Source: Alistipes sp. (GTDB taxonomy: Bacteria; Bacteroidota; Bacteroidia; Bacteroidales; Rikenellaceae). From it: DNA of 56,535 bases. The translations under genes were made by a program, and so were the position numbers. The stretch is taken from assembly GCA_017558115.1 (NCBI GenBank), contig JAFYWG010000036.1, positions 1 to 56,535 of the forward strand. Reading direction: 5' to 3'. Under the pieces are notes generated by a model that had not been told where the DNA came from, searched no databases, and worked only from the letters and a program-made list of their open reading frames with translations. Below are positions 19,041-33,884 of the stretch, piece by piece; the stretch's first letter is position 1, and every line of letters begins with the position of its first letter.

Positions 19041-19302
19041 TCGTACCTTTAACTCCTTAAATTCCATACTCCCTATTTACTCCCTCAATAGAGCCCCAAA
19101 GAAGCCATAGTCCCTATTGTATTTTTCTCCCTTATATACCGCTCTGTATGAACCTACCTAACTATATAACAATCTGTAACTAATTCTCCGATTTTTTCTT
19201 TGTTGGTTCAGTTTTTTTTTATACCTTTACATAAAATATGGGCATACTATCCCAATGCCTATTATAGGATCGATTTACAACATAAAATAAGATATACACA
19301 CT
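19041..19302 (+). promoter_or_regulatory. Upstream region and promoter of the Srf-like unit
   Basis: No gene. 19047-19090 is a half copy of the 9-base-period element (TTAACTCCT, TAAATTCCA, TACTCCCTA, TTTACTCCC). TTTG (19199-19202), a 19-base spacer and TACCTTTA (19222-19229) make a near-consensus Bacteroidetes promoter, with a start near 19233. The mRNA would then begin with a 7-pair hairpin TGGGCAT/ATGCCTA (19239-19261), a form that often protects 5' ends. The leader is about 70 bases long. Confidence 0.65.
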
Positions 19303-22300
19303 ATGGAGAACCTAACACTGATTGCTAACTCGGGTATCCAGATGCTTACGTTTAGACTTAAGCTAAATACCCAGGATAAATTTAAGATGTGGTTCCGCGA
19401 GTGGTACGACACGAGCAATGGACAGTGGCGCTTGGAGCTTGCCCACGAGGTAAACACTGAGGATAGCGTGCTCTTCTACGATAAGCACGAACTCTTCGAT
19501 GGCGGTTATCTGAACGACCCATCCATAGAGTACGACCCCGTAGAACTTCGCAACGAGGGCATCAACCCCTTGCGCATTGACGACGAGATGTGCGAGAATG
19601 TAAGAGGCGAGCTCTACAAGATGACGTTTGCCGATAAGCACAACGCCTTCCGCAGCTTAGAGAATAAGTGGTTGCCCATACCATACTTCTTCAAACGCAC
19701 TGAGAAGCGCTTTAAGTTCAGCCCTATGAACTGGTCGCGCGTGAAGTTTGTGCCCCGCGCAACATCTACCACAGAGATGGAGTACGATGTAATCCTCGCC
19801 TTCGACACGCGTGCAGGCTATGAGTCGGATAAGTACAACGAGTTCCCCGTATTCCCCGATCAGTATTGCTCGGAGATGAGTTTCGCGCTTTGCGATAACG
19901 AGTTCTTCCTTATGGACTACTGCTCATCGCAGGAGAATTGGAGCTACATCAACGAGTATATCTTTAAGCTCATTCACCCAACGCTCAACAATGTATCGCA
20001 GATTAAGGGTGCCAATGTGCATAAGATGTCGTACATTGCATCGTACATCTTCTTTGTCAACTACTTGGCGCAGAATAAGCTTCTGCCAATGGTTAAGTTG
20101 TACAAGGATAAGGATGTCGAGATTCGTAATGTGGATATGGTTATCGACATCGGTAACTCACGCACTACGGCGCTCGTCATCGAGGATAACTCAAACTTCA
20201 ATCAGGTTAAGCCTCTTAGCCTCATAGATTTCACAGACCTCTTGCAGGAGGGCGACCAGGGTAGCATAATCCGCACATACAACGAGCCATTCGATATGCG
20301 CTTAGCATTTAGAAAGGTGGACTTTGGAGCCTTTGGCATCAACGACAGTAAGCAGTTTGTGTACCCCAGCTTTATTCGTCTTGGCCAGGAGGCAAGCACT
20401 CTTATCCACCGCGCTTGTAGCTCGGCATGGGAGGAGGAGACGCTCTCTACATACTCAAGCCCCAAGCGCTATCTTTGGGATGGCAAGCCAAGCAAGAAGG
20501 AGTGGGAGTTTATGGTGTTGCCTGGTGAGGAGAACGACCATATCCTCAATATCCGTGGCATCAGCTCACTGCTTATGAGCGATGGTAGGTTAGATATTAC
20601 TGGCGCAAGTGGAGGCCGCACTTCGCACTACTCGCGTCGCAGCCTTATGACATTCGCCTTCTTGGAGATGCTTACGCAGGCAAATACTCAGATTAATAGC
20701 GAGCCATATCGCACTGATGTGGGTTGGAAGACACAACCTCGCAAGCTAAAGCGTATCATCGTGACATGTCCTACGGCGATGTCTAAGATTGAGCGCGAGG
20801 CACTTGTTAAGTGTGCTAAGGATGCTGTTACACTCTACGGCAGATTTATCTATGGCGATAACGCCCCAGTCATCGATATCATACCCGCTGTGCGCTCGAT
20901 GAGGGATAGCGACGGCTCGTGGTACTACGATGAGGCAACATGCGCGCAGCTCGTATATATCTATGGCGAGATTGGCCATAAGTACAAGGGCGTGTGCAGC
21001 GAGTTCTTCAATCTCTACGGCAAAGTGACCGAGGGTAGTGCCCTTCCAACGCTCACCGTAGGTTCGTTGGATATCGGTGCGGGTACCTCTGACCTTATGA
21101 TAAGTGAGTACTCATATGTTAAGAGCGATCTGACTACCATCACTCCAGATCCAAAGTTCTACGACAGCTTCTACTTCGCGGGTGACGACATGATGAAGGC
21201 CCTTGTGAAGAATGTTATGTTGCTCGATGAGAAGCATAGTGCCTTTAGAAAGGCTCTGCGCCACCTCGATGCTGTGGAGTACCGCCAGAAGATTAAGAAC
21301 TTCTTTGGTCTCGACTACAATGGTCAGACCATCGCCGACCGCATTGCGCGCCGCGACTTTAACATACAGTACTCTGTGCCGCTTATGACCCACTTCTTGG
21401 AGCTGGCGTCAAACGATAGCGGCAGTTGCATTGTGCGCTACGAGGATGTGTTCAAGAAGAATCAGCCTAACCCACGTGTTGTTGAGGACTTCAAAAAGCG
21501 TGTGGGCATCGACATCACAACGCTCAGCTGGGAGTACAACAAGGAGTTTGTTGCCGACATCATCTCGAAGGAGTTTGAGCCTCTGTTGAAGAAGATTGCA
21601 GCGATGTTCTTCGCATACTCGTGCGATGTTATCCTTCTCTCGGGACGTCCATCGTCGCTGCCAGCTATTCGCAATATCTTCCTCAAGTACTACCCCGTAT
21701 CGCCCAATAGGCTTATCACGCTCAACAACTACTATGTTGGCGACTGGTATCCCTTCTGCCAGAATACGGGATATATCACCAACCCAAAGACAATCGTGGC
21801 TATGGGTGGCGTCATTGGCCACTATGCCTCGGAGTTCTCCAACCTCGACAAGTTCTCTATCGACTTGGAGAAGCTTAAGAACAACCTTAAGTCTACGGTA
21901 AACTACATCGAGGCATCGCGCGATGGCCAGCCTATCGAGTACCTCATCACTCCCGAGAAGATGCAGGGCGAGCTCACCGTTAGCCGCATGCCCGATATGC
22001 TCACCGTACGCCAGTTTGGCTTGGCTACATACCCCTCGCGTGCACTCTACTCCATCGACTTCAACTATATGAAGCTCGTAAATAAGATTCGCAACCGCGC
22101 GTTGGATGCTGGCGAAAACCCCTCGGATGCTGCGGTGCAGTCTATGGCAAACGAGGAGATTGAGGGCTTGAAGAAGCGTATGCCCTTCAAGATCACTATC
22201 GATCGCGACCCCGATAACAAGGAGGAACTCTCGATAAGTGCTATTGTAGATAGAAATGGCACTGAGCTCTCGGATAGCAGCATCGAGATAAACATCCAGA

Positions 22301-22353
22301 GCTTGGGTATCGACGATCAGTATTGGTTGGACTCTGGTGCCTTCGATTTTTAA
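19303..22353 (+). CDS. SrfB-like actin/Hsp70-fold ATPase
   Basis: 1,016 residues, close to the length of the SrfB 'virulence factor' family (Pfam SrfB). It has the marks of an actin/Hsp70-fold ATPase: phosphate loop 1 DIGNSRTTALVIE (from Asp282), phosphate loop 2 SLDIGAGTSDLM (from Asp590) and an adenosine motif LLSGRPSSLP (778-787) followed by NYYVGDWYPF and NPKTIVAMGG, which match the SrfB C-terminal pattern. The first 280 residues form an extra domain without TM segments or signal peptide, so it should be cytosolic. It heads a seven-gene unit and is followed 27 bases later by the SrfC-like gene, the same B-C order as in enterobacterial srfABC. Family assignment is firm; function is not known. 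Confidence 0.85.
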   Translation: MENLTLIANSGIQMLTFRLKLNTQDKFKMWFREWYDTSNGQWRLELAHEVNTEDSVLFYDKHELFDGGYLNDPSIEYDPVELRNEGINPLRIDDEMCENVRGELYKMTFADKHNAFRSLENKWLPIPYFFKRTEKRFKFSPMNWSRVKFVPRATSTTEMEYDVILAFDTRAGYESDKYNEFPVFPDQYCSEMSFALCDNEFFLMDYCSSQENWSYINEYIFKLIHPTLNNVSQIKGANVHKMSYIASYIFFVNYLAQNKLLPMVKLYKDKDVEIRNVDMVIDIGNSRTTALVIEDNSNFNQVKPLSLIDFTDLLQEGDQGSIIRTYNEPFDMRLAFRKVDFGAFGINDSKQFVYPSFIRLGQEASTLIHRACSSAWEEETLSTYSSPKRYLWDGKPSKKEWEFMVLPGEENDHILNIRGISSLLMSDGRLDITGASGGRTSHYSRRSLMTFAFLEMLTQANTQINSEPYRTDVGWKTQPRKLKRIIVTCPTAMSKIEREALVKCAKDAVTLYGRFIYGDNAPVIDIIPAVRSMRDSDGSWYYDEATCAQLVYIYGEIGHKYKGVCSEFFNLYGKVTEGSALPTLTVGSLDIGAGTSDLMISEYSYVKSDLTTITPDPKFYDSFYFAGDDMMKALVKNVMLLDEKHSAFRKALRHLDAVEYRQKIKNFFGLDYNGQTIADRIARRDFNIQYSVPLMTHFLELASNDSGSCIVRYEDVFKKNQPNPRVVEDFKKRVGIDITTLSWEYNKEFVADIISKEFEPLLKKIAAMFFAYSCDVILLSGRPSSLPAIRNIFLKYYPVSPNRLITLNNYYVGDWYPFCQNTGYITNPKTIVAMGGVIGHYASEFSNLDKFSIDLEKLKNNLKSTVNYIEASRDGQPIEYLITPEKMQGELTVSRMPDMLTVRQFGLATYPSRALYSIDFNYMKLVNKIRNRALDAGENPSDAAVQSMANEEIEGLKKRMPFKITIDRDPDNKEELSISAIVDRNGTELSDSSIEINIQSLGIDDQYWLDSGAFDF

Positions 22354-22380
22354 TGGTGGAACAATTTGAATTTGGTGTAT

Positions 22381-25197
22381 ATGACTAAAGATATTATCAC
22401 TAACCTCGACGTTATTAAGAGTTCTGTCGCATGGGCCGACAGATATGGTAAGGACTCCTTCCCACGCGAGGTATTTAAGAACTATCGTCGTAAGCTTAAG
22501 CGTATTGGCGAGGCCCTCTCGGAGAACTGCTCGGCTGCAGCCTATGGCGAGAGCCAGGTGGGTAAGTCCTACCTTATGAGCAGCCTGCTATCTACGCCCG
22601 ATGCCCCCTTTGTCATCGAGAATAATGGCGTGCGCTACAGCTTTATCGACCAGATAAACCCCAGTGGTGGTAACAACACTAAGCAGGAGTCTACAGGTGT
22701 CATCACACGCTTTACTATTCGACAGTCAAATGCTAATATGGCAGATTACGTGAGGGTTACAAACCTCTCGGTAGTAGATATCATCTTGCTCTTGGCCGAC
22801 TCCTACTACAACGATGTTAAGATACAGACCGATAGCGTGATGCTAAGCAGCGATATTGACAACGCTCTATCGCAGATGACAGACCTGTGGAGTTCTAAGT
22901 CGGTACTTTCGGAGACAATTACAGAGGATGACGTACGCGATATATGCGACTACCTCAACGAAATTATAGGTAACAATGCTGCCAACATCTGCAAGTCGAA
23001 CTTCTGCAAGGTTGTGGCTCCCGTGATCACGCATGTCGCGAGTGAAAACTGGGTTAACATCTTCGGTCTTATCTGGAATAACAACCCCGAGCTAAATCGC
23101 CTCTTTAGTACGCTTATCAACGAGTATCGCAAGCTCAACTTCGCAACAGAGGTATATGTGCCTTTCGATGCTGTGCTTAGAGATAAGGGTACGTTGCTTA
23201 AGATTGATTGGCTCGACTCGGTATGTGGTATCCACAAGGAGACTAACGATGATGTGCTCTACACCGACGTCTACGACGGCCAGGGCAATATCCTTGCAAA
23301 TGACTTTAGCAAGGCATATCTCTCGGCTTTGGTCGGTGAGCTTACGTTTGTGCTACCTGAGGATATCGCTGCGGAGCGTAAGTTTCTGAAAAAGATTGAC
23401 TTGTTGGATTTCCCAGGTGCTCGTTCGCGTGAGAAGATCAATGAGCAGCAGCTCGGCGAGGTGCTTCCCACTATTCTTCGCCGTGGTAAGGTAGCCTATC
23501 TCTTTAACAAGTATTCGCGCTCGTTAAAGATTAGCTCGGTGCTCTTCTGTCACCACAACGACCAGAAGACTGAGCCTACCATCGGTGCATCTATCCACAA
23601 CTGGATTGAGAACAACATAGGCGAGACTCCTGAGGTACGTGCAGGTATTCTCTCGCGTACGAATGGCATTGCGCCCCTATTCCTCATCTGCACAAAGTTT
23701 AATATCGACTTGGAGAAGACCAAGAATGATACACCCGATACTATCTCGAAGTTGGACGACCACTGGGCACGCTTCAATACCACCATCCCAAAGATTATTG
23801 AGCCCGAGAAGTGGCTTGATGAGTGGGTTACTGTGGGTGGTATGTTCACCTCGCCATGCTTCCAGAATGTATATTTGTTGCGCGACTTCTACTGGTCGGC
23901 AAAGAATCGTGTGTTCGATGGCTACAGCGAGCAACTTGGCACGGTGGAGAGTGCTGTGCACACATTCCCAGAGTACCCCAACTTCTTCTCAGACCTAAGA
24001 GATAGCTTCCTCGCTAATAGCTTTGTGCGCAAACACTTCGCTACGCCTCAGCAGGCATGGGATGATGTTGCAACGATTAATAACGATGGCTCAAAGGCTA
24101 TTATCCGCAATCTCGATGCGATTGCTGAGGTGCTCGATGATGCCCGCAAGGAGCGTTATATGCAGCAACTTAGAGAGATACGTAATGAGATAGTAAGCCG
24201 CCTTAGTGTATACTACGAGTCGGAGGATAAGGGTGATAACAACGTCAAGATTCGTAAGATTACGGGCGACATAAAGCTTAAGACGGAGTTTGCCTTTGGT
24301 GAGAAGCCCGAGCTCTTTGGTCGCATTATAGACAACCTTATGGTGTCGTCTACAGATATTCGTAGTATCGCCTACGATATCATGGTGCGCCATATCGAGG
24401 AGCCTCAGAGCGTTTCGTCAATAAAGATGATTCGTGCCTTCTGCGATATCGATATCAACGATCCACGCTCGGTAAATATCGACAAGTTGTGCAAGCGATA
24501 CAACAAGGAGGAGGGCGAACTTAAGAGTCTCTTTGAGGAGATGGGTGTTATGCTCGATGACATTATTTCGGATGAAAGCGAACTCCTTGCCACCATCCCA
24601 GATGTCATTGCTAAGCATATCATCGAGTACTGGAACAACCATATCAACGAGCAGGTTAAGCTTATGAGCGACGTGTTGCCACATGCCGACGAGATAGCAT
24701 TTATGATACTCACGTTGCTGAATAAGTTGGGTGTAAGACGTGCCATTGCCGACAAGATCAATACCTACTACGCTATCTTTGATATGAATGGTCTGCCCAA
24801 TGCCATTGCTGACTACGCCTCACTCACGCTCAACAACTTCGTGAGCACCGTAGGTCGTGATTACATGTCGGAGAGCGACATGGCAAACATCGCTCAGAAG
24901 GCTAAGAGTTGCCACCTCGACATCGACCTCTCGCCTGCGGCATCGAGCTCAAGCATCAAGCCACAGCCTCTGTTGGAGGTGCTCACGGCGCTCGACCAGT
25001 CGCGTGACGAGATGAATAGCTCGCGAATAGACCTCACTACGTTGAAGAAGTTGCCATTCTGGGATAGCTATCAGCGTTGGGAGAACTTCATCACCATTGG
25101 TCTATTGTATGCAAGCGACATCTCGCATGTAGACCCCGTGGCAAATGCTGCAATCAAGGAGATAATCGACACAAGTAGTAACCTTTATACAAGATAG
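22381..25197 (+). CDS. SrfC-like P-loop GTPase (putative virulence factor family)
   Basis: 938 residues from the ATG at 22381 (a TTG at 22366 would add five). The Walker A loop GESQVGKS is at 56-63, the switch II/Walker B motif LLDFPGARSR at 341-350 and a G4-like CTKFNID near residue 446, so it probably binds GTP. The long helical remainder recalls dynamin-like proteins, and the SrfC family (Virul_Fac in Pfam) is of this size. No TM or signal peptide. It ends 4 bases before the protease gene, so the two are probably translationally coupled. What it acts on is unknown. Confidence 0.82.
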   Translation: MTKDIITNLDVIKSSVAWADRYGKDSFPREVFKNYRRKLKRIGEALSENCSAAAYGESQVGKSYLMSSLLSTPDAPFVIENNGVRYSFIDQINPSGGNNTKQESTGVITRFTIRQSNANMADYVRVTNLSVVDIILLLADSYYNDVKIQTDSVMLSSDIDNALSQMTDLWSSKSVLSETITEDDVRDICDYLNEIIGNNAANICKSNFCKVVAPVITHVASENWVNIFGLIWNNNPELNRLFSTLINEYRKLNFATEVYVPFDAVLRDKGTLLKIDWLDSVCGIHKETNDDVLYTDVYDGQGNILANDFSKAYLSALVGELTFVLPEDIAAERKFLKKIDLLDFPGARSREKINEQQLGEVLPTILRRGKVAYLFNKYSRSLKISSVLFCHHNDQKTEPTIGASIHNWIENNIGETPEVRAGILSRTNGIAPLFLICTKFNIDLEKTKNDTPDTISKLDDHWARFNTTIPKIIEPEKWLDEWVTVGGMFTSPCFQNVYLLRDFYWSAKNRVFDGYSEQLGTVESAVHTFPEYPNFFSDLRDSFLANSFVRKHFATPQQAWDDVATINNDGSKAIIRNLDAIAEVLDDARKERYMQQLREIRNEIVSRLSVYYESEDKGDNNVKIRKITGDIKLKTEFAFGEKPELFGRIIDNLMVSSTDIRSIAYDIMVRHIEEPQSVSSIKMIRAFCDIDINDPRSVNIDKLCKRYNKEEGELKSLFEEMGVMLDDIISDESELLATIPDVIAKHIIEYWNNHINEQVKLMSDVLPHADEIAFMILTLLNKLGVRRAIADKINTYYAIFDMNGLPNAIADYASLTLNNFVSTVGRDYMSESDMANIAQKAKSCHLDIDLSPAASSSSIKPQPLLEVLTALDQSRDEMNSSRIDLTTLKKLPFWDSYQRWENFITIGLLYASDISHVDPVANAAIKEIIDTSSNLYTR

Positions 25198-25201
25198 GCG
25201 T

Positions 25202-28105
25202 ATGGCTGAACATACTCTCTATGGTAAAAGAAAACTCTGTTATACAGAGGTTACAGATTTCACCGATTTCCAGGGAATCGGTCGAGATCCACTATATAAG
25301 CGATTCGATAGTGTCTACGCTGTAATAGAGCGACATATAGCTCCCGAGTACAGAGACTTCCTCGCTCACCCCATCTATTCGGATGAGGACCAGATATTAT
25401 GGTATGTGCGCGAGTGGCATGGTACGCCAAGCCAGTATAACGAACTGTCCGACGCGGAGAGAGTGCGCTACGACGCTATCAAGCAAAAGACGATTGAGGT
25501 CTATAAGAAGGTACGTAACGAACTTTCGGGAGAGGATAAACAGATCCTCACTGGTGCCTTGCGCTTCATCGACGAGGACTTCATGTTCTGCTATGACGAT
25601 AAGGTTGTTTTGGTGGCGTGGGGCATGGTGCCCGACACCAATAAGCATATTGTCAAGGGCGCCGTTATGCACGACCTTAAGATTCAGAGCAGCCACAAGA
25701 TTAAGTTCATGGTGGGCGAGCATGGTACGCTTAAGGATAGACTCTCGGGCGTCGTAAGCCGCCCCGATGGCTCTACTCTCTCGTTTATAGACATTCCAGA
25801 GGTTAAACCAAATCGTGGCTATGCCTTCAAGTGCTGGGAGCCAAACCCTATAGGTGTGAAGGTGACAAGTGCCCTTACCTTCGTGGCGCAGTATGATGCT
25901 GTAGATGTTGAGGAGGAGGTCGTTGTGGAGCGTGCAAACGTGACGTTTGTGGCAGAAGAGGGTGGTGTGCTCGATGGTGAGTGCTCCATCAAGGTAGATA
26001 AGGGTTTGTGTATCGACCCCATGCTCATACCTCGTGTTGTGCCCAATCCTGGCTACTCGTTTGCAGGTTGGAATATAGAGCCTTATGGCGCTATCAACGA
26101 GGATGTGACATTCCGAGCAGAGTTTAAGCGCGATGATGTCACATGCCGCTTTATTGCTGGCGATGAGGGTGTACTTAATGGTAACTCTATTGTCACACTC
26201 CCATATGGTACCGTGCTTACAAGTGAGCATGTGCCCACGGTAGAGCCCAAGCGTGCCTATGAGTTCCTTGGCTGGGATAGGACGCCCGTAGGCATGGAAC
26301 TGACTGGTGAGGAGTGCTTCAAGGCGCAGTATAAGAAGATACCATGGTATAAGCGCTTCTGGCGTTGGCTAACACGCAATGGTTGCCTATGGTGGCTGTT
26401 GTGGATATTGTTGGCAATACTCCTTACATGGTTGTGCATCTATCTGTTTGATGGTTGTGAGCGACGTCGTAGTGTATCGAAAACAGATGTGATTGAACTT
26501 CCTAAAAAGAAGACCCCAGATGGAGATATCATCGACGACAATGGCCCAATTAAGGGTATTGTGGATGATGAAGGTAACCTCCCTGATGAGGTTATCGTAG
26601 CACCTATCGTGGGTGATGACGGCGAGCAGCCTCCAATAATTACAAATCCAGGTGCTCCCGACATCATCGCTAACCGCTTGAATGTATACTTTGAGAAAGC
26701 CGATGTCAACCTTGACCAGTTTGTTAAGGATATGAAGAGCTTCTATGATGAGGAGCAGTGCAAGGCCATCGGTGTGGATAGGCATGTGCCTATGATACAG
26801 CTGCTTATCGATGAACGTCTACGTGATAAAATCCGAGAGGAACTTCCTCAACACCTTAGTGGCTACGAGTTCTTTATCGTTGACGAGGCTATCTTCTCGT
26901 TGGTAGGTAGCCATAGTAGTGATGTTGTAAGTGCTGGCTGGCACCTCGATGCAATCGACGTTGAGGAGGGTTGGGAGATAACGAAGGGTGATCCCAATCT
27001 TATCGTTGCAGTTGTTGACGACGGCATCGACGCTACGCACGAGATACTCAAGGGTAGAATCGTAAAACCCTACAACGTCTTTACTAAGGATAATAGATTG
27101 AGCACAGGTTCGGGCCATGGTACTCACGTAGCAGGCTTGGCTGTGGGTTCGGATATAAAGTTCGATGAGGGTGTGTCAGGCGTTGCGCCCAACTGTAAGC
27201 TTATGCCTGTTCAGGTATTCGACAACGAGTACTGCACATTCTCGTCTTTAACAAGCGGTATCATGTATGCCATCCACAATGGTGCAAGCGTGGTGAACGT
27301 GTCGGTAGGACCCAACTTCAATGGTCTCGATATGTTGCCTGACTCACAGCAGCGTGGCATCGCAGATACGATGTTTAAGAACGAGGAGGCTGTGTGGCGT
27401 CGCATTATCAATGTGGCGAACGAGCATAACGTTATCATCGTATTCGCCGTAGGTAACAACCATATCTTGGCTACGATACCTCCCGAGAACCGCACAAACT
27501 ACACCATAAATGTTGCGGCCGTAGATAGCAACATTCGCGAAACGGACTTCACAAACCACGGTGAGGGATCTAACATATCTGCTCCAGGTCAAGGTATTCT
27601 AAGTTCAGTGCCACGCAGTGACTATGCTGTATTTGATGGCACCAGCATGGCGGCGCCTATCGTGGCGGGTACTGTGGCGTTGATGAGAAGCTGTGACCCC
27701 GATATCACTGTCAGCGAGGTTTTGTCCATCTTGCAGAGGACGGGTGAATTGGTGTCAAATCGCATACCCCCTATGGTTCAGGTAGACGATGCACTTATAG
27801 CTCTTACAACTGGTGTCTTCCCCGATCGTTCAAGGGATGTAGGTAATGGTGGTGTTACGCCGGGTAATGGTGGTAGTACCCCAGGTACTGGTATCGGCAC
27901 AGCACCAGGCAATGGTAGCGGTGTAGTTCCAGGCAATGGTGGTGGTTGCGCCCCAGGTAATGGAACTGTTGTCACTCCTGGCAATGGCACTACAATACCA
28001 GTAGACCCAGGTGCAGGTGACGACTACGAACGCATCCGACGCCTTATCGAGGAGTATAAGCGCAAGATTGCAGAATTAGAGAAACTACTTCCTGAAAATA
28101 AATAA
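25202..28105 (+). CDS. Membrane-anchored subtilisin-like protease with a possible SrfA-like N-terminus
   Basis: 967 residues. Residues 1-160 are a soluble domain ending in a strand-WG motif (VVLVAWGM) that resembles the start of SrfA-family proteins; this match is tentative. Three repeats of about 65 residues (166-232, 245-310, 313-377) each end in a GYxFxxW and FxAxYK/F pattern like InlB B-type repeats. A TM segment lies at 394-416, after a basic KRFWRWLTRN. The S8 peptidase domain follows at about 570-870, with the complete set Asp606 (VVDDGID), His639 (GHGTHVAG), Asn752 (VGNN) and Ser815 (GTSMAAP). A tail of PGNG repeats (about 882-935) leads to a short coiled coil. No N-terminal signal peptide, so the TM is probably the anchor, with the protease outside the cytoplasm. 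Confidence 0.85.
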   Translation: MAEHTLYGKRKLCYTEVTDFTDFQGIGRDPLYKRFDSVYAVIERHIAPEYRDFLAHPIYSDEDQILWYVREWHGTPSQYNELSDAERVRYDAIKQKTIEVYKKVRNELSGEDKQILTGALRFIDEDFMFCYDDKVVLVAWGMVPDTNKHIVKGAVMHDLKIQSSHKIKFMVGEHGTLKDRLSGVVSRPDGSTLSFIDIPEVKPNRGYAFKCWEPNPIGVKVTSALTFVAQYDAVDVEEEVVVERANVTFVAEEGGVLDGECSIKVDKGLCIDPMLIPRVVPNPGYSFAGWNIEPYGAINEDVTFRAEFKRDDVTCRFIAGDEGVLNGNSIVTLPYGTVLTSEHVPTVEPKRAYEFLGWDRTPVGMELTGEECFKAQYKKIPWYKRFWRWLTRNGCLWWLLWILLAILLTWLCIYLFDGCERRRSVSKTDVIELPKKKTPDGDIIDDNGPIKGIVDDEGNLPDEVIVAPIVGDDGEQPPIITNPGAPDIIANRLNVYFEKADVNLDQFVKDMKSFYDEEQCKAIGVDRHVPMIQLLIDERLRDKIREELPQHLSGYEFFIVDEAIFSLVGSHSSDVVSAGWHLDAIDVEEGWEITKGDPNLIVAVVDDGIDATHEILKGRIVKPYNVFTKDNRLSTGSGHGTHVAGLAVGSDIKFDEGVSGVAPNCKLMPVQVFDNEYCTFSSLTSGIMYAIHNGASVVNVSVGPNFNGLDMLPDSQQRGIADTMFKNEEAVWRRIINVANEHNVIIVFAVGNNHILATIPPENRTNYTINVAAVDSNIRETDFTNHGEGSNISAPGQGILSSVPRSDYAVFDGTSMAAPIVAGTVALMRSCDPDITVSEVLSILQRTGELVSNRIPPMVQVDDALIALTTGVFPDRSRDVGNGGVTPGNGGSTPGTGIGTAPGNGSGVVPGNGGGCAPGNGTVVTPGNGTTIPVDPGAGDDYERIRRLIEEYKRKIAELEKLLPENK

Positions 28106-28116
28106 AAGAGAGAGAT

Positions 28117-29124
28117 ATGGCAATTAATGAAACACTAAAATTTTCGTGGGGACATATCATAGCCTTCGTGGCGCTGATATTTATCAGTTATGTCTCATTT
28201 ATGGGTATTACATACCTTACCGATGGTAATTTTATCTTTGCAGGTATTGGTGTAGTGGTTATAGACCTGATACTCATCCTATTCTTTATCGTGCCCCAGA
28301 TTCTCAAAGCTACAGATGCTAAGTTCGACCGTAGGATAATCTTCGAGCGTATACTCATCTGTGCTGCTCCCATATTCTTTGTGGTGGTTATGGTCCCCTA
28401 CGCACACTTCTGGACAGTCTTTAAGAATAGAGAGGTAATCGAGAAGACCTTCTCGGAGTCGTTGGAGACAACTAAGGGCATGTTCGACTCTTACGAGGAG
28501 TATGCCGAGGCTCGTGTTAGGGCATACAGCGACTCGCTCACCGTAAGATATTACGACACTGTGGCTATGCGCAATCCTCAGGAGATGCGTTGCTTGAACC
28601 AGGTAGAGGCGTTGAGCCTCCAGCTCAAGTCCGATAACTTCGACAATCTCAAGGCTACAGCAGTAGAGTGGGTAGATGACGCTGCAGGTACTACCGTGTG
28701 GAACGTATTTAAGATTGGTAACCTTAAGACCATCGAGAAGTCTCTCGATGATTGGAATAGCTCGTTGACAGAGTTCTCGAAGAAGAAGATGACGGATGAG
28801 AGCGCAAATGTCAAGGCTTTCACATCAGAAGATAAGAGCGTGATGGCAGCGAAGGAGAAGTTTAACACACTTCGCTCGATTTACACCTCGGTGAAGGTAC
28901 CTACAATTATTGCTATTGGCGTAGCGGTGTTGCTCTATGCAATGCTTATGTTCCCCTACTTTATTCAGAACCGTAATACCAAGAGTATATATAGCCTCTT
29001 TGGCAATGAGCGCAGTAAGAAATCAGCAAAGAGTGCAAAGCCTAAAAAGGAGGGCAATGAAATCACATTTGTAGAGGATGGCTCATCATCTAACAAGGGA
29101 GACTACGACTCATTTACAATATAA
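28117..29124 (+). CDS. Four-TM membrane protein of the Srf-like unit
   Basis: 335 residues, family not recognised. Three TM segments lie near 13-35, 40-63 and 76-98; a soluble loop of about 160 residues rich in Glu, Lys and Ser follows, then a fourth TM near 262-284 and a basic, serine-rich tail (KSAKSAKPKKEG). With three N-terminal crossings and one more, both ends would lie on the same side, and the positive tail suggests the cytoplasm, leaving the big loop outside. It starts 11 bases after the protease gene. A scaffold or partner of the protease is plausible but unproven. Confidence 0.75.
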   Translation: MAINETLKFSWGHIIAFVALIFISYVSFMGITYLTDGNFIFAGIGVVVIDLILILFFIVPQILKATDAKFDRRIIFERILICAAPIFFVVVMVPYAHFWTVFKNREVIEKTFSESLETTKGMFDSYEEYAEARVRAYSDSLTVRYYDTVAMRNPQEMRCLNQVEALSLQLKSDNFDNLKATAVEWVDDAAGTTVWNVFKIGNLKTIEKSLDDWNSSLTEFSKKKMTDESANVKAFTSEDKSVMAAKEKFNTLRSIYTSVKVPTIIAIGVAVLLYAMLMFPYFIQNRNTKSIYSLFGNERSKKSAKSAKPKKEGNEITFVEDGSSSNKGDYDSFTI

Positions 29125-29151
29125 CTAACGCAAACACACTAACACAACAAT

Positions 29152-30780
29152 ATGAGTAACTTAGATACTATATTTGATAACATCGATCAGTATAGCAACA
29201 ATATCGATGATCTGGTAGCGGCCTTAAAGCAGGCTGGTATCAATGATTTTGACGAGTTTAAGCGAGCAGCACGTGAGTTGGGCCTACCAGTTAAGAAGTC
29301 TATTCAGGATCAGGTGGCAGAGAAGTTTGCATCTGGCGATTCTGATGCTTGGGCTGAGGCGACAAGCCTCGACACAGAGGATGCCTACTGGAAATATCTC
29401 GATGCCAACCCAGAGGGTGAGCACCGCGAGGAGGCACGCACACGCATTGATGAGTTGAAGCAGCAGAGTAAGGCAGAGGTGAGTGTAGATATTTGGGAGT
29501 GCCTCGATAAAAGTAATATTGCCGAGGTGCAGCGCTTTATCGATACATATCCCGATAGCGCTTTCCGTGATGATGCTGCCAGGATTCTAAAGGAACTTCG
29601 TAAGGATCAGTATCTTGGCGTCGATATCAAGGCGTTGGAGCGTCAGATGAAGGCAATTAGAACCGATGCTCAGGTAATTAACCCCGAGAAGGCAATATAT
29701 GAGCGCATCGTAAGCTTTATTAATAGCGGTAAGATAAAGGTAAATGATCTTCTCGATGCACTTGCTGAGGATAATAACTTTATTAGTGGTACCGTAGCCA
29801 ACCTCTTGTGGGAGAATAATGTTATTACAGACTTCTCGCGTGCAGGCATTGACAGCGACTTTATCGCTCACATGATGTCGAATATCACTCCTCAGAAGTT
29901 TATGGCTCCCGAGCCTATGACAAGGATTACAAAGAACCCATGTACTGAGGTCTACTTCTGGGGTATTCCATCATCGGGTAAGAGTTGTGCGTTGGGAGCA
30001 ATTCTCAGTGCGGCAAATAGCGGTAAGATAGCACGAAGCATGCAGCGCGATCCCGACTGTCAGGGTTATGGCTACATGAACCGCTTGGCTAACCTCTTTA
30101 AGACTAATGGTTCGGTGGGTACACTTCCTGCGGGTACGGCAATTTCGTCGACATATGAGATGGGCTTTAACCTTGAGGCTGAGGATGGTAAGGTGCATCC
30201 AATCACATGTATCGACTTGGCGGGTGAGCTTGTAAGATGTATGTATAAGCATGATGCTAGAGAGCCTCTTACCGATGAGCAGCAGAATGTGTTGCAGACG
30301 CTCACCGATGTCCTTATTGATAATCGTACAGATAATCGCAAGATTCACTTCTTCGTCATAGAGTATGGCGCTGAGGATAGACTCTATGAGAACTTGCCCC
30401 AGAGCGTATATCTCGATGCTGCTGTAGCCTATATCCAGCGTACAGGTATCTTCAAGAAGGATACCGATGGTCTATACCTTCTTATCACTAAGGTAGATAA
30501 GGCTCATGCTGTTGGTGAAGAACTTAGGGAAAAGCTTCGCGCATATATTTCGGATAACTATCAGGGCTTCTACAATGGTTTGTGTAAGATTTGTAAGGAT
30601 AACGAGATTAATGGAGGTAAGGTTGAGATTCAGCCCTTTACCTTGGGCTCGGTATGCTTCCAGAACTATTGCAAGTTTAAGGATGAAACAGCAGCCACTG
30701 TTGTCAGAACACTTATAAATAGATCGTACGGCTACAAGACAGGTAAGCTTAGTAGCATTGTAAACAAATTCAAGAAGTAA
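29152..30780 (+). CDS. GTPase-like P-loop protein with N-terminal helical repeats
   Basis: 542 residues, no TM or signal peptide. The first 160 residues are helical, with two repeats of the form W-x-E-A/C ... Y/F-I/L-x-x-x-P-x-G/S-x-x-R-x-D/E-A (around 64-102 and 117-150) that look like TPR-type protein-binding repeats. The P-loop GIPSSGKS is at 271-278, a switch-like CIDLAGE (Asp355) and TKVD at 446-449 fit G1, G3 and G4 of a Ras-fold GTPase. The C-terminal part reads like a partner or effector surface. It is unlike the SrfC-like protein, so the unit encodes two different GTPase-like proteins. Specific family not recognised. Confidence 0.75.
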   Translation: MSNLDTIFDNIDQYSNNIDDLVAALKQAGINDFDEFKRAARELGLPVKKSIQDQVAEKFASGDSDAWAEATSLDTEDAYWKYLDANPEGEHREEARTRIDELKQQSKAEVSVDIWECLDKSNIAEVQRFIDTYPDSAFRDDAARILKELRKDQYLGVDIKALERQMKAIRTDAQVINPEKAIYERIVSFINSGKIKVNDLLDALAEDNNFISGTVANLLWENNVITDFSRAGIDSDFIAHMMSNITPQKFMAPEPMTRITKNPCTEVYFWGIPSSGKSCALGAILSAANSGKIARSMQRDPDCQGYGYMNRLANLFKTNGSVGTLPAGTAISSTYEMGFNLEAEDGKVHPITCIDLAGELVRCMYKHDAREPLTDEQQNVLQTLTDVLIDNRTDNRKIHFFVIEYGAEDRLYENLPQSVYLDAAVAYIQRTGIFKKDTDGLYLLITKVDKAHAVGEELREKLRAYISDNYQGFYNGLCKICKDNEINGGKVEIQPFTLGSVCFQNYCKFKDETAATVVRTLINRSYGYKTGKLSSIVNKFKK

Positions 30781-30786
30781 AGAGAT

Positions 30787-32499
30787 ATGAACGAAAATAT
30801 GTTAGGACTAAAAGTAGTCCGTGTTTATGATGGATATACTGACTTGTTGGAAATTAATGGTAACAAGTCATGGATTTCAAATGTGCGCGATATCCGAACA
30901 GAACTCGAGAATGTAACCAATCTTGATGGCACATCAGCTGCGTTGATGCTCACAAGCCTCGAGACAGGTCATCTTATTACGGTTGCTTCGTGGATCGGTG
31001 GCCGCATTGGTGATTGTATTAGTGCATGGATATATGTTCCTGCAACGATTAACGTTAGTGGTAAGGAGCTCGTAGACATTATAGATGCTGTGAAGAGTGG
31101 AATCCTTGCCGATAGACTCAATGATGAGCAGCTCCGCGAGATATTCGCTAAGAGCTATCCTATGGCTCAGGCTAAGAAGATTACCGTGCAGAGTAGTGGC
31201 GATAAGTGTGCTTTCAGATACTATGGTCAGCGCACTAAGTACACTTTGGCTGAATTGTTGGCCGAGATGTGCCAGCGCGAGTACAAGGAGTATAAGAATG
31301 TTTTCCTTCTCGACAATGCCTCTAACCTAAAGTGCCGAGTGGGAGATAACCTCACCGACCAGAATGTGCGCCCAATGATTGTTATTCCAGTACCTGGTGT
31401 TGTCGATAACTTCGTGCCCCACATCAACAGTGAGATCTTCGATAAGGCAATATGTGCTATCGAGGGTGATGAGTTGTTGGTAGAGTGGAAGCGCCCGGGA
31501 TATTCTACAATCAAAAAGCAAATTAAGGCTGCAAAGGATGTGAAGTGCCCAGTGCCTACTCGAAATGAGCATGCTATTATCATTAAGTACGACTTAATCC
31601 AAGTATTTGATGATACTACAGGTAATCGCCTTGAAAACTATACGTTGTCTATTAATAATCAGGTTATTCCCGAGGGTAAGAAGGTGTCGATTAGTGCTGA
31701 CATTATATCTAAGTCTAAGGTTGAGATTAAAGCAGATGGCTTTGATACATATAAGGGGGAACTCGATTTGCGCAGAGAGCAGTCTGTATATTTACGCAAG
31801 AAGCGTCATGCTTATAAGTTCGTTGTAGTATCAAAGAGTGGCGAGAAAATTTGTCTCGAGTATCAGATTAAGGGTGAGTTGGAGACATGTCCTATTCAGG
31901 GTTATGTCCCAATTGGTAAGGAGTTAAATCCAAATATCGAAAATGGCCTCAAATATCGACCATATTCAACGACATTCAAATCAGTATTGGCAATTGCAAT
32001 GGTCATTATGTTGGGGCTTGGTTTTGCAGGTGGCTGGTTTATGAATAGCTATCTAAATGTAGATGGTAAGAAAGAGACAGCTAACCAAGAAGAAACGAAT
32101 AATGTTAAAGATGAGCCTAAGGAGGAAAATCAAGAAGCACAACTTGTTTTAGCGCCTGAGGTTTGGAAACAGCTTATCCAATATCTTGATACCCATAAAA
32201 ACGATGAAGGTAACATTGTGTGGTATAGATCTGATATGGAGGCTTACGGGGCTGTTGCTCTGTGGGATTACCTTAATGAGTATAAGTTCGATGAAATCCT
32301 CAAGTACAAGGAAGAACTCAATGAATCAGAGAATTTTGCAAAGATAATTATTGAGCTAGAGAAGAGTAAAGATGCTACGAATCTTGAAAAGTTTAATCCC
32401 GAGGGAGATTTAAAGATAACACTTGAAAATTATCTGAAAAAGATTGCATCTTTGAAAGAGAAGCCTCAGGGTGATGGCCCAGATGCAGTGAATCCTTGA
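30787..32499 (+). CDS. Single-TM protein with a PEGA-like domain
   Basis: 570 residues, family not recognised. The N-terminal 260 residues are soluble with no signal peptide. Residues about 270-345 (FDDTTGNRLENYTLSIN, KVEIKADGFDTYKGELDL) look like a PEGA or related beta-sandwich. One TM segment lies near 397-420 (SVLAIAMVIMLGLGFAGGWF), followed by an acidic, helical tail to the end. This gives N-in/C-out topology, with most mass in the cytosol. It starts 6 bases after the second GTPase gene. Its second half is richer in A+T than the upstream genes of the unit. Confidence 0.7.
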   Translation: MNENMLGLKVVRVYDGYTDLLEINGNKSWISNVRDIRTELENVTNLDGTSAALMLTSLETGHLITVASWIGGRIGDCISAWIYVPATINVSGKELVDIIDAVKSGILADRLNDEQLREIFAKSYPMAQAKKITVQSSGDKCAFRYYGQRTKYTLAELLAEMCQREYKEYKNVFLLDNASNLKCRVGDNLTDQNVRPMIVIPVPGVVDNFVPHINSEIFDKAICAIEGDELLVEWKRPGYSTIKKQIKAAKDVKCPVPTRNEHAIIIKYDLIQVFDDTTGNRLENYTLSINNQVIPEGKKVSISADIISKSKVEIKADGFDTYKGELDLRREQSVYLRKKRHAYKFVVVSKSGEKICLEYQIKGELETCPIQGYVPIGKELNPNIENGLKYRPYSTTFKSVLAIAMVIMLGLGFAGGWFMNSYLNVDGKKETANQEETNNVKDEPKEENQEAQLVLAPEVWKQLIQYLDTHKNDEGNIVWYRSDMEAYGAVALWDYLNEYKFDEILKYKEELNESENFAKIIIELEKSKDATNLEKFNPEGDLKITLENYLKKIASLKEKPQGDGPDAVNP

Positions 32500-32519
32500 A
32501 ATAATTAAATGCTAATATT

Positions 32520-33821
32520 ATGAAAAATATTGGATCTAAAATATTGATTCTCGGATTTGTTATCGCAGTAGCTGTAGCGGGCGTACTCGTGTTCTATCCG
32601 ACCATTGTAAAGCCTCCTGTGGATGTCGCTATGAATAATCCTCATACCGCTAATGCCGAGGCTACTATAGGCGATTTCGTGGAGAATGTCAATGATTTTG
32701 CACATAATGACTCGCTCTTCTATGCTATGGTAGATAAGCTCGAGGTCTATAGACTCGAGAAGTATCTCACCGAGGACGAGCTCGACAAGCAGACACTCTC
32801 ACTTGTGCGTAGCTATGTGCCCATCTTTATAAAGTGGTGTAACTCAAAGTTTGGCGAAAGCACTTGGAATGCTAAAGAAGACCATCCACGCATGCAGAAG
32901 CGTATTGCAGATGTCAGAGCCTTGACTATTGGTCCTGAGAATGCGCGAGTAACCGCTGTCTCCGATACCCACGAGGATGATTTGGAGTATGTGGAGACAG
33001 TTATTAGAGACTATAATAAGGCTACAGAAGTTGCAAAATCCTCTTCATTTGTATCGGTTGATAAGGCTAAAAAGACCATCGACGAGGCTAACAGATACTA
33101 CAACACCGAGCCATTGGATAATTGTAAGGATTTGAGGACTAAACTCTCGGAGGTTAAGGTTAAGATTGGCAAATCACACTATGCAAAAGTGGAGGCTAAG
33201 GTCGAGGAGATGGCGCGATATCGCTATATGACAGAGGATAGCTTCAACGCACTCAAGGAGACAGCTAAGTCAATGATTGATGAGTACGACTCAAATCGCT
33301 ACAACTATGGCCGTGATGCAAAGACATCTGATGACTTGCTTATAAAGTTTGATGAGTATAGTGCAGCTGCTGAGGATTATTACAGCGTGAAGTCAATTTA
33401 TATTGGACACAATTATGAATGGGAATACATTGATTCACCTGATAGTTCCTATCGTGCATTGCAATCATACTATAACAAGGGACGCGATGGTTATAATGCG
33501 ACTATGTATTTCGATATTAGTGGTTATGATGAGTTTACTTTCTATATTAGAAGCTATGGTGAGTCTAATTATGACTATGTTAAGGTTTGTAAGGTGCTTA
33601 AAACTAATAGTATAGGATCTTATCCTCCTGCATCAAGTTATTATAGCGACAGTACTTATGGTAAATCAACTAGCGGAACATCAATATATTCTTATACGCC
33701 TGTAACGTATACTGATTTGGATAGAAATCAGACGTATAGAATATATGTTGTCTATCAAAAAGATAACACAAATTCTTATAATGATGACCGTGGTTATGTG
33801 CTAATCCCTTATGCTAACTAA
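32520..33821 (+). CDS. N-terminally anchored extracytoplasmic protein
   Basis: 433 residues. A signal-anchor (residues 6-28, ILILGFVIAVAVAGVLVFY) is followed by a long helical, charged stretch to about 290, probably coiled coil, and a beta-rich C-terminal domain (about 295-433) full of Tyr and Ser (GYNATMYFDISGYDEFTFYI near 325-344). The domain looks like a beta-sandwich of the kind used for binding, but no family was recognised. No lipobox was seen. Its coding sequence is more A+T rich than the srfB-like gene. It closes the unit and is followed by a strong terminator. Confidence 0.7.
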   Translation: MKNIGSKILILGFVIAVAVAGVLVFYPTIVKPPVDVAMNNPHTANAEATIGDFVENVNDFAHNDSLFYAMVDKLEVYRLEKYLTEDELDKQTLSLVRSYVPIFIKWCNSKFGESTWNAKEDHPRMQKRIADVRALTIGPENARVTAVSDTHEDDLEYVETVIRDYNKATEVAKSSSFVSVDKAKKTIDEANRYYNTEPLDNCKDLRTKLSEVKVKIGKSHYAKVEAKVEEMARYRYMTEDSFNALKETAKSMIDEYDSNRYNYGRDAKTSDDLLIKFDEYSAAAEDYYSVKSIYIGHNYEWEYIDSPDSSYRALQSYYNKGRDGYNATMYFDISGYDEFTFYIRSYGESNYDYVKVCKVLKTNSIGSYPPASSYYSDSTYGKSTSGTSIYSYTPVTYTDLDRNQTYRIYVVYQKDNTNSYNDDRGYVLIPYAN

Positions 33822-33841: not shown

Positions 33842-33884
33842 AGAGAGACCTCAAAGTTCAGGCTTTGGGGTCTCTCTTTGTTTG
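33842..33884 (+). terminator. Terminator of the Srf-like unit
   Basis: AGAGAGACCTCAAAG-ttcagg-CTTTGGGGTCTCTCT (33842-33877) is a 15-pair stem with one T-G pair, followed by TTGTTTG. It also lies just past the stop of the converging AraC gene, so it may serve both. Confidence 0.85.

What the first reader, a model, noticed from the sequence alone, without database searches (positions are those of the whole stretch)
19303..33821. Seven-gene Srf-like unit linking an actin-fold ATPase, two GTPases and a membrane-anchored protease
The genes run head to tail with gaps of 4-27 bases, a promoter before the first and a strong terminator after the last, so they look like one 14.5 kb transcript. SrfB-like and SrfC-like proteins are known from enterobacterial srfABC operons. 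Here they are joined to a complete subtilisin-like protease on a TM anchor, a four-TM protein, a second GTPase-like protein and two single-TM proteins. Three nucleotide-binding proteins in the cytosol and a protease likely outside suggest an envelope-spanning machine in which nucleotide hydrolysis controls proteolysis. Roles to consider are secretion, interbacterial or phage defence, or envelope stress response. The function is my hypothesis; the domain content is read directly.
Basis: partly seen in the sequence, partly recalled or inferred. Interest (0 to 1): 0.88.

Follow-up and report, generated by a model that had tools for sequence, protein, structure and literature searches.

The report
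Srf operon with membrane-anchored protease
A seven-gene operon in a gut-type Bacteroidales genome joins the two nucleotide-binding Srf proteins to a membrane-anchored subtilisin protease whose front part turns out to be the third Srf partner (SrfA), which turns a long-unexplained 'virulence' operon into a testable switch-and-protease machine.

Summary
In detail: seven same-strand genes with gaps of 4-27 bases, a promoter-like site and a strong terminator. SrfB and SrfC are certain. The new result is the third gene: its N-terminal domain is that of SrfA (profile-profile probability 99.8%, E 7.6e-28; controls 0.3% or less), followed by a TM helix and an intact subtilisin domain predicted periplasmic. 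So this is a srfBCA operon with SrfA fused to a protease, plus a four-TM protein, a GTPase distantly like DO-GTPases and two membrane-anchored proteins. Of 32 Bacteroidota srfB loci examined, many cut by contig ends, 14 keep the SrfB-SrfC-third gene-4TM-GTPase order, 13 of them with a subtilase. The four-TM gene has strong matches in 8 of 344 genomes of the order, all among the 20 with SrfB. Elsewhere SrfA-N carries trypsin, papain-like, transglutaminase-like or vWA domains, but over half of 65 SrfA-N proteins have no recognised enzyme. Best explanation: an NTP-gated switch for exchangeable effectors, here a periplasmic protease, answering envelope damage or attack. The role is inferred; anti-phage defence is possible but unsupported. 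Structure prediction could not be completed. New variant of a known kind.

The parts
19199..19229 (+). Bacteroidetes-type promoter-like site TTTG-N19-TACCTTTA (one mismatch)
   Evidence: found in 10% of shuffled copies of the intergenic stretch, so weak
19303..22353 (+). SrfB, 1016 aa; actin/Hsp70-type ATPase motifs DIGNS (from residue 282), DIGAGTSD (590), LLSGRPSS (778)
   Evidence: PF07520 E 6.5e-216; phosphate-1 and phosphate-2 motifs kept in 31 of 31 aligned sequences; no PDB relative by phmmer at E 1
22366..25197 (+). SrfC, 943 aa; GTPase-like: P-loop GESQVGKS, RF(T/S) switch-like region, DFPG; fourth motif (TKFN here) degenerate in several relatives
   Evidence: PF10139 E 4.1e-99; GKS and DFPG in 26 of 26 aligned sequences; fold not confirmed
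25202..28105 (+). SrfA fused to subtilase, 967 aa: SrfA-N domain, InlB/Flg_new-like repeats, TM, linker, Peptidase_S8
   Evidence: hhalign to proteobacterial SrfA 99.8%, E 7.6e-28; PF00082 3.5e-44; triad intact
25223..25687 (+). SrfA N-terminal domain (residues 8-162), predicted cytosolic
26369..26440 (+). transmembrane helix (about residues 390-413), N-in/C-out by charge
26996..27742 (+). subtilisin catalytic domain (residues 599-847), Asp606 His639 Ser815
   Evidence: PDB 1dbi E 8.3e-32
28117..29124 (+). P4, 335 aa, four TM helices with a domain of about 160 aa between TM3 and TM4 predicted periplasmic; no named family
   Evidence: all 8 strong matches in 344 genomes lie in SrfB-positive genomes
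29152..30780 (+). P5, 542 aa, GTPase-like, family distantly related to DO-GTPases; P-loop GIPSSGKS, Walker B DLAGE, TKVD
   Evidence: no Pfam match better than E 0.037 for the window protein; 4 of 15 aligned members match DO-GTPase2 and 4 DO-GTPase1, best 5.6e-8; motifs
30787..32499 (+). P6, 570 aa, N part predicted cytosolic, TM at 400-418, C part periplasmic; least conserved of the seven
   Evidence: N-in charge bias in 9 of the 9 tested, of 11 P6-like proteins
32520..33821 (+). P7, 433 aa, N-terminal TM (8-26), rest predicted periplasmic
33842..33877 (+). intrinsic terminator, 16-pair stem

Best explanation
The operon is a Bacteroidota form of srfABC in which SrfA carries a periplasmic subtilase. 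SHOWN by sequence: SrfB with actin/Hsp70 ATPase motifs; SrfC with GTPase motifs; SrfA-N domain, TM and a catalytically complete S8 domain in one protein; linkage to a four-TM protein, a GTPase distantly like DO-GTPases and membrane-anchored proteins; other output domains on the same SrfA-N domain elsewhere. INFERRED: SrfB and SrfC bind the cytosolic SrfA-N domain and form an NTP-dependent platform under the inner membrane. P4, P6 and P7 sense damage or an attacker in the envelope, and P5 relays this. NTP binding or hydrolysis by SrfB and SrfC clusters or releases the anchored protease, which matures and cleaves periplasmic or surface targets. The most likely role is a response to envelope damage or to attack by neighbours, with the protease as effector.
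For: SrfA identity: an HMM of seven Bacteroidota N-termini finds the gene just upstream of srfB in all 5 proteobacterial loci first examined (annotated SrfA in two) and in 4 of 4 later loci (annotated SrfA in three). hhalign: 12 S8-protein N-termini against those 9, 99.8%, E 7.6e-28; against four other SrfA-N proteins encoded beside SrfA (two annotated serine or trypsin-like protease, one vWA, one unannotated), 99.4%, E 5.9e-21; against N-termini of P4, P5 and P7, 0.0-0.3%. The nine SrfA score 29.0-67.9 bits, the best of 20 shuffled ORF sets 11.1. S8 triad intact in 16 of 16 and 8 of 8 further proteins (one read by eye after the script's pattern missed it). Outputs: of 34 SrfA-N proteins S8 12, trypsin 2, vWA 2, transglutaminase-like 1; of 31 others S8 8, papain C1 1, TerF-type vWA 1. 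SrfA, SrfB and SrfC of Xenorhabdus bind each other in co-immunoprecipitation (PMC6950479, abstract and passages). P4 only with SrfB: 8 of 8 strong matches, Fisher p 2.8e-11. Identity to the three nearest loci falls from SrfB/SrfC (77-88%) to P4 (52-58%), P7 (48%, one locus) and P6 (31-40%). vWA, ABC ATPase, FtsX-like permease and SUMF1 genes lie beside srfABC in 4 of 9 proteobacterial plasmid loci. PMC3608642 (section 16 read) names tagQ, ppkA and often tagRST plus a Hap-like gene at srfABC of host-associated Deltaproteobacteria, only one of which has T6SS machinery. TagQRST-PpkA senses outer-membrane damage (PMC11881912, passages).
Against: No experiment links NTP hydrolysis to proteolysis. 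In 4 of the 13 S8 loci of this type (G914, G1111, G1224, G560) the S8 protein has an N-terminal TM and no recognised SrfA-N; in G554 SrfA-N/TM lacks the protease. Over half of 65 SrfA-N proteins have no recognised enzyme, and a class of about 390 aa has no TM. SrfB stands without SrfC nearby in G1074, G1162 and G961. SrfA-N occurs without detected SrfB in 4 of 21 positive genomes. The InlB/Ig-like repeats between SrfA-N and the TM would lie in the cytosol, unusual for such repeats (recalled). The Tag-like genes are absent from this operon and NCBIfam does not name their relatives as Tag proteins. Gene order is B-C-A, and the full SrfA model scores 16 bits against a cut-off of 150.
Confidence: 0.42

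Rival explanations
1. Anti-phage defence by abortive infection: sensing of phage entry at the envelope triggers the NTPase switch and the subtilase kills or disables the cell.
For: Patchy presence with very different SrfB in one genus (about 87%, 37%, 33% to the window), as for mobile defence systems; the Runella plasmid operon lies next after a BREX operon; DO-GTPase systems are proposed conflict systems (PMC7159879, section 27); a caspase-family gene precedes srfB in G721.
Against: PADLOC: nothing for SrfB, P4 and P6 at E 1, only E 0.009 or worse for SrfC, P5 and P7, and generic subtilase or IetS matches for the protease; no SrfB match in 50,697 phage records; the protease is predicted periplasmic, unusual for abortive infection (recalled). 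119 neighbouring ORFs matched 51 PADLOC models at E 1e-8, many redundant, without a control set, so no enrichment can be claimed.
Confidence: 0.22
2. An envelope quality-control or surface-protein-processing machine, with the Hsp70/actin-like SrfB as chaperone and the subtilase as maturation or degradation protease.
For: SrfB carries Hsp70/actin motifs; the other parts are predicted cytosolic or membrane-bound.
Against: Present in only 20 of 344 genomes of the order and 5 of 180 of the genus, own genome included, and broken by an IS in G481, unlike a core quality-control function; output domains are exchanged.
Confidence: 0.2
3. A secreted or injected toxin or virulence complex, as claimed for Xenorhabdus SrfABC.
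For: SrfABC lysates and purified proteins are cytotoxic to cultured animal cells (PMC6950479, abstract and passages).
Against: The SrfA homologue is an inner-membrane type protein; window SrfB and SrfC have no hydrophobic N-terminal segment (no signal predictor was run); relatives occur in freshwater and soil isolates.
Confidence: 0.06
4. Chance neighbourhood: the last four genes are unrelated passengers.
For: P6 and P7 are poorly conserved; homology of the P6-like proteins outside the nearest loci is not shown (10-17% identity).
Against: Same order through P5 in 14 Bacteroidota loci down to about 33% SrfB identity; P4 strong matches only with SrfB.
Confidence: 0.03

Closest known systems
srfABC operon of Enterobacterales and other proteobacteria (PF07520, PF10139, NF040486)
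   Same: Homologous SrfB, SrfC and SrfA N-terminal domain; SrfA of L028 and L031 also has a TM after that domain
   Different: Gene order B-C-A; SrfA ends in a subtilase; four extra membrane and GTPase genes; no vWA, ABC, SUMF1 genes
DO-GTPase/GAP1 conflict systems (Kaur et al. 2020, PMC7159879; section 27 and passages seen)
   Same: P5 family is distantly DO-GTPase-like with the Walker B glutamate; the GTPase gene is followed by a fast-evolving protein; an Hsp70 partner occurs in some
   Different: No GAP1 match; no GASH or FNIII match among the seven proteins; 'Srf' does not occur in the paper's text
TagQRST-PpkA envelope-damage sensing of the T6SS
   Same: Reported beside srfABC in Deltaproteobacteria (PMC3608642); similar genes beside srfABC in 4 of 9 plasmid loci here
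   Different: Absent from this operon; no kinase and no T6SS gene among the seven
Type VII secretion mycosin
   Same: Best NCBIfam subtilase match (143 bits)
   Different: Below its cut-off of 279 bits; TM is N-terminal to the protease; no T7SS family among the other six proteins

Membership tests
srfABC operon | SrfB (PF07520) | tested here: met
   720 bits, cut-off 27.1, profile positions 10-991 of 992
srfABC operon | SrfC (PF10139) | tested here: met
   333.5 bits, cut-off 28.1
srfABC operon | SrfA N-terminal domain followed by TM | tested here: met
   hhalign 99.8%, E 7.6e-28; TM
srfABC operon | whole-length SrfA model NF040486 | tested here: not met
   16 bits, cut-off 150; the C-terminal part is a subtilase
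srfABC operon | order srfA-srfB-srfC | tested here: not met
   order is B-C-A
DO-GTPase/GAP1 system | DO-GTPase with Walker B glutamate | tested here: inconclusive
   window P5 has the Gly-Glu motif but no Pfam match; 4 of 15 aligned members match, best 5.6e-8
DO-GTPase/GAP1 system | GAP1 protein | tested here: not met
   no GAP1 model among the families matched by 11 P6-like proteins at E 0.05
known anti-phage systems (PADLOC-DB 2.0.0) | hit to a system's proteins | tested here: not met
   only subtilase and partial IetS matches for the protease (best 7.6e-19); NF042956 24.3 bits against 900
Type VII mycosin | TIGR03921 cut-off | tested here: not met
   143.2 bits against 278.75
TagQRST-PpkA pathway | ABC transporter, SUMF1 protein and kinase in the operon | tested here: not met
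   none among the seven proteins in Pfam
actin/Hsp70 ATPase fold (SrfB) | phosphate-1, phosphate-2 and adenosine motifs | tested here: met
   phosphate motifs in 31 of 31 aligned sequences; fold itself not modelled
dynamin-like GTPase (SrfC) | dynamin fold and stalk | not tested

The most novel reading that the evidence does not exclude
SrfA-N is a general docking tag of an undescribed envelope immune system: one SrfB/SrfC NTPase core serves several exchangeable SrfA-N proteins per cell (up to 10 matches in one genome), among them membrane-anchored proteases of at least three unrelated families, which it unleashes in the periplasm on attack, a bacterial counterpart of inflammasome-type protease activation.
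Probability: 0.22. Interest if true: 0.9.

Novelty: new variant of a known kind. Interest (0 to 1): 0.67.

Why it matters
srfB and srfC carry a 'virulence factor' label, two papers seen here call the operon's function unclear (PMC3608642 section 16; PMC2869309 passages), and srfB occurs on 142 plasmid records, 114 of them Klebsiella. Recognising SrfA as an adaptor that carries proteases in other genomes gives a concrete catalytic output and a direct test: mutate the subtilase serine or the SrfB/SrfC nucleotide sites and look for cleavage. It also ties Srf to DO-GTPase-like proteins and to envelope-damage sensing genes.

Tried and rejected
Considered and dropped: a T7SS link (mycosin match below cut-off); IetAS (partial S8 match only); P6 as GAP1 (no match); defence-island enrichment (119 neighbouring ORFs scanned, of 237 candidates; one very long selected ORF left out; no control set, so not used). 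A clean empty site was not found: the purine operon upstream is shared with relatives, but in the three relatives readable beyond it (L095, L097, L098) the following genes did not match the window, and in two others the contig ends. A P5-profile hit in G721 (caspase protein, L063:1013-3355) lacks a P-loop and is a false member; it is still among the 15 rows, and the caspase match is that row. P7 is recognised by sequence in only a few loci. The PDB profile search with SrfC gave chiefly nanobody-type chance hits, with SrfA-N nothing significant. Literature: searches joining SrfB/SrfC with subtilase, defence or actin/Hsp70 terms gave no relevant paper in the rows shown (of 58 and 913 papers only the top 10 and 6 were listed; one found none). 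No Rfam match at gathering score in the window. After re-checking, two odds were lowered (best explanation 0.45 to 0.42, novel case 0.25 to 0.22), because the SrfA-N proteins are not mostly proteases.


Full report
OBSERVATION. The seven ORFs lie as described, with gaps of 12, 4, 11, 27, 6 and 20 bases. Pfam confirms SrfB, SrfC and a subtilase; the last four proteins have no match at a family cut-off. A promoter-like site lies 74 bases before the first gene and a 16-pair terminator follows the last. The operon has lower G+C (46.5%) than its flanks (51.5% and 51.0%), falling from 49.9% in srfB to 40.1% in P7. It sits between purine-biosynthesis genes (purH, purD, folD and a purB-like lyase) and an AraC-type regulator. 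The window is contig 15 of a genome given as 85% complete.

THE PROTEASE IS SrfA. The NCBIfam SrfA model gave a weak hit to residues 50-149 of the subtilase protein (E 0.006). I built an HMM from the N-terminal 165 residues of seven Bacteroidota proteins and searched 286 ORFs of the loci then held. Above the inclusion threshold, apart from the seeds, were nine ORFs: the gene just upstream of srfB in all five proteobacterial plasmid loci (annotated SrfA in L028 and L029), and four proteins encoded just before it with trypsin-like, vWA or unassigned output. In four later loci it found the gene upstream of srfB in all four (annotated SrfA in three). Profile against profile: 12 S8-protein N-termini against those nine, 99.8%, E 7.6e-28; against the four neighbours, 99.4%, E 5.9e-21; N-termini of P4, P5 and P7 as controls, 0.0-0.3%. 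The domain has an F(A/S)xP...W...WG signature.

ONE ADAPTOR, SEVERAL OUTPUTS. Of 34 SrfA-N proteins, 12 match a subtilase, 2 a trypsin, 2 a vWA and 1 a transglutaminase-like model. Of 31 others, 8 match a subtilase, one a papain-type peptidase, one a TerF-type vWA, and 20 a carboxypeptidase-regulatory-like (transthyretin-type) repeat. So at most 27 of 65 carry a recognised enzyme or vWA domain. In Bacteroidales three layouts recur: SrfA-N/TM/S8 (about 800 aa), SrfA-N/Ig-like repeats/TM/C-terminal domain (about 750 aa) and SrfA-N/Ig-like without TM (about 390 aa). One genome (G920) has 10 matches. The S8 triad is intact in 16 of 16 and 8 of 8 others. Charge bias puts the N-terminus inside and the protease outside in 13 of 13 tested, narrowly in several. 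About 100 residues before the catalytic domain are conserved with it (Runella match 488-874, 39%), as expected of a prodomain; no inhibitor family was matched.

CO-CONSERVATION. I looked at 32 Bacteroidota srfB loci, many cut by contig ends (at least L004, G561, G920a, G959, G969, G973, G1154, G1165) and one truncated (L005). Fourteen have SrfC, third gene, P4 and P5 in the same order: window, L002, L003, G481 (srfB interrupted by an IS), G158, Runella L027, G1067, G930, G914, G1111, G1224, G560, G554, and G1011 over two contigs with SrfC cut. Thirteen of these have S8 as third gene, nine of them with SrfA-N; G914, G1111, G1224 and G560 have S8 without it; G554 has SrfA-N/TM without S8. All seven proteins are recognised by tblastn only in G481 and G1011 besides the window; L002 and L003 were fetched only as far as P6. 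Elsewhere proteins of like layout stand in the place of P6 and P7, homology not shown except for P7 in a few loci. Other loci have SrfB, a protein of 287-351 aa, then SrfC, with SrfA-N/S8 next (G920b, G960, G987, G721) or on another contig (G940, G959, G1154). In G1074, G1162 and G961 no SrfC lies near SrfB. Of the 20 SrfB-positive genomes among 344 of the order, 13 showed SrfA-N/S8 in the DNA I fetched, 3 S8 without SrfA-N, and 4 none, one of them (G1165) because the contig ends at the start of the S8 domain; I fetched only parts of these genomes. P4 had matches below E 1e-10 in 8 of 344 genomes (same request, taken as the same draw), all 8 SrfB-positive (Fisher p 2.8e-11; with only the two genomes not in the query alignment p 0.0016). 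Two weak hits (E 1.9e-4 and 6.0e-4) include one SrfB-negative genome. SrfA-N was found in 21 of 277 genomes, 17 of them SrfB-positive; the other four are three of one genus and G1071.

DISTRIBUTION (own genome included). SrfB: 2 of 395 in the phylum sample, 2 of 150 in the family over the cut-off (5 at E 0.001), 5 of 180 in the genus, 20 of 344 in the order; 2 of 248 in the family of G158. In one genus SrfB ranges from about 87% to 33% identity to the window, no closer at the low end than another family (36%) or Runella (34%), so I infer horizontal movement; no tree was made. On plasmids SrfB is found in 142 of 72,556 records, in phages in none of 50,697.

MECHANISM. SrfB keeps the phosphate motifs of actin/Hsp70 ATPases in 31 of 31 and SrfC keeps GKS and DFPG in 26 of 26; SrfC's fourth GTPase motif is degenerate in several. 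SrfA, SrfB and SrfC of Xenorhabdus form a heteromeric complex (PMC6950479, abstract and passages). I infer that SrfA-N is where SrfB and SrfC bind and that NTP turnover gates the effector across the membrane. The sensing side is inferred from P4, P6 and P7 (membrane-anchored and the least conserved: 52-58%, 31-40% and 48% where SrfB is 80-88%) and from proteobacterial contexts. Of nine plasmid loci that I chose from the 40 listed, four (L028, L031, L032, L104) have vWA, ABC ATPase, permease and SUMF1 genes (in L031 the vWA, permease and SUMF1 by similarity to L032), three have SrfABC without them (L029, L102, L105) and two other genes (L030, L103). NCBIfam did not name these as Tag proteins in L028 and L032. 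The Tag reading rests on PMC3608642 section 16, which reports tagQ and ppkA, in most also tagR, tagS and tagT, and a Hap-like gene at srfABC of host-associated Deltaproteobacteria, and on PMC11881912 (passages), that this pathway senses outer-membrane damage.

KNOWN AND NEW. Kaur et al. (PMC7159879, section 27 and passages) describe DO-GTPase conflict systems, effector-associated adaptor domains and, in another system, trypsin with S8 peptidases; 'Srf' does not occur in the text. P5 is distantly DO-GTPase-like. In my searches (openly licensed PMC papers only, listings capped) I saw no paper joining SrfB/SrfC to a subtilase, to phage defence, or to actin/Hsp70 with proteases. Srf components are known, and the Runella protease is annotated as an S8 peptidase; the SrfA identity of the protease, the exchanged outputs and the seven-gene form appear new.

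Noticed in passing
L015:12491-13594; L005:641-2203: srfB of G481 is interrupted by an IS4-type transposase ORF near residue 515; the copy in L005 also ends near residue 515 with no remainder in the following 6.7 kb, perhaps a shared insertion hotspot (transposase type judged by eye).
   Followed up: partly
window 36272-38650: Patatin-like phospholipase joined to an Omp85-type domain (type Vd autotransporter-like) downstream of the operon.
   Followed up: no
window 15069-15158: ARAGORN calls a tRNA-Asn (att) inside the purH ORF; probably spurious.
   Followed up: no
L027:1-14000: On the Runella sp. SP2 plasmid the Srf operon starts about 1.3 kb after a BREX operon (brxC to brxL).
   Followed up: partly
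L063:1013-3355 and L062:7594-8538: In G721 a caspase-family gene ends about 150 bases before srfB, and an AAA-type ATPase gene (MoxR-like by eye) lies beyond the SrfA-S8 gene.
   Followed up: partly
L065:4-11541: In G1223 a 3847-residue protein with one TM follows srfC, where other genomes have the SrfA-S8 gene.
   Followed up: no
L016:11390-13417: In G481 a TPR protein with a C-terminal retropepsin-like aspartyl protease domain lies downstream of the seven genes.
   Followed up: no
plasmid collection: 142 plasmid records carry srfB, 114 from Klebsiella, 125 of 142 typed non-mobilizable.
   Followed up: partly
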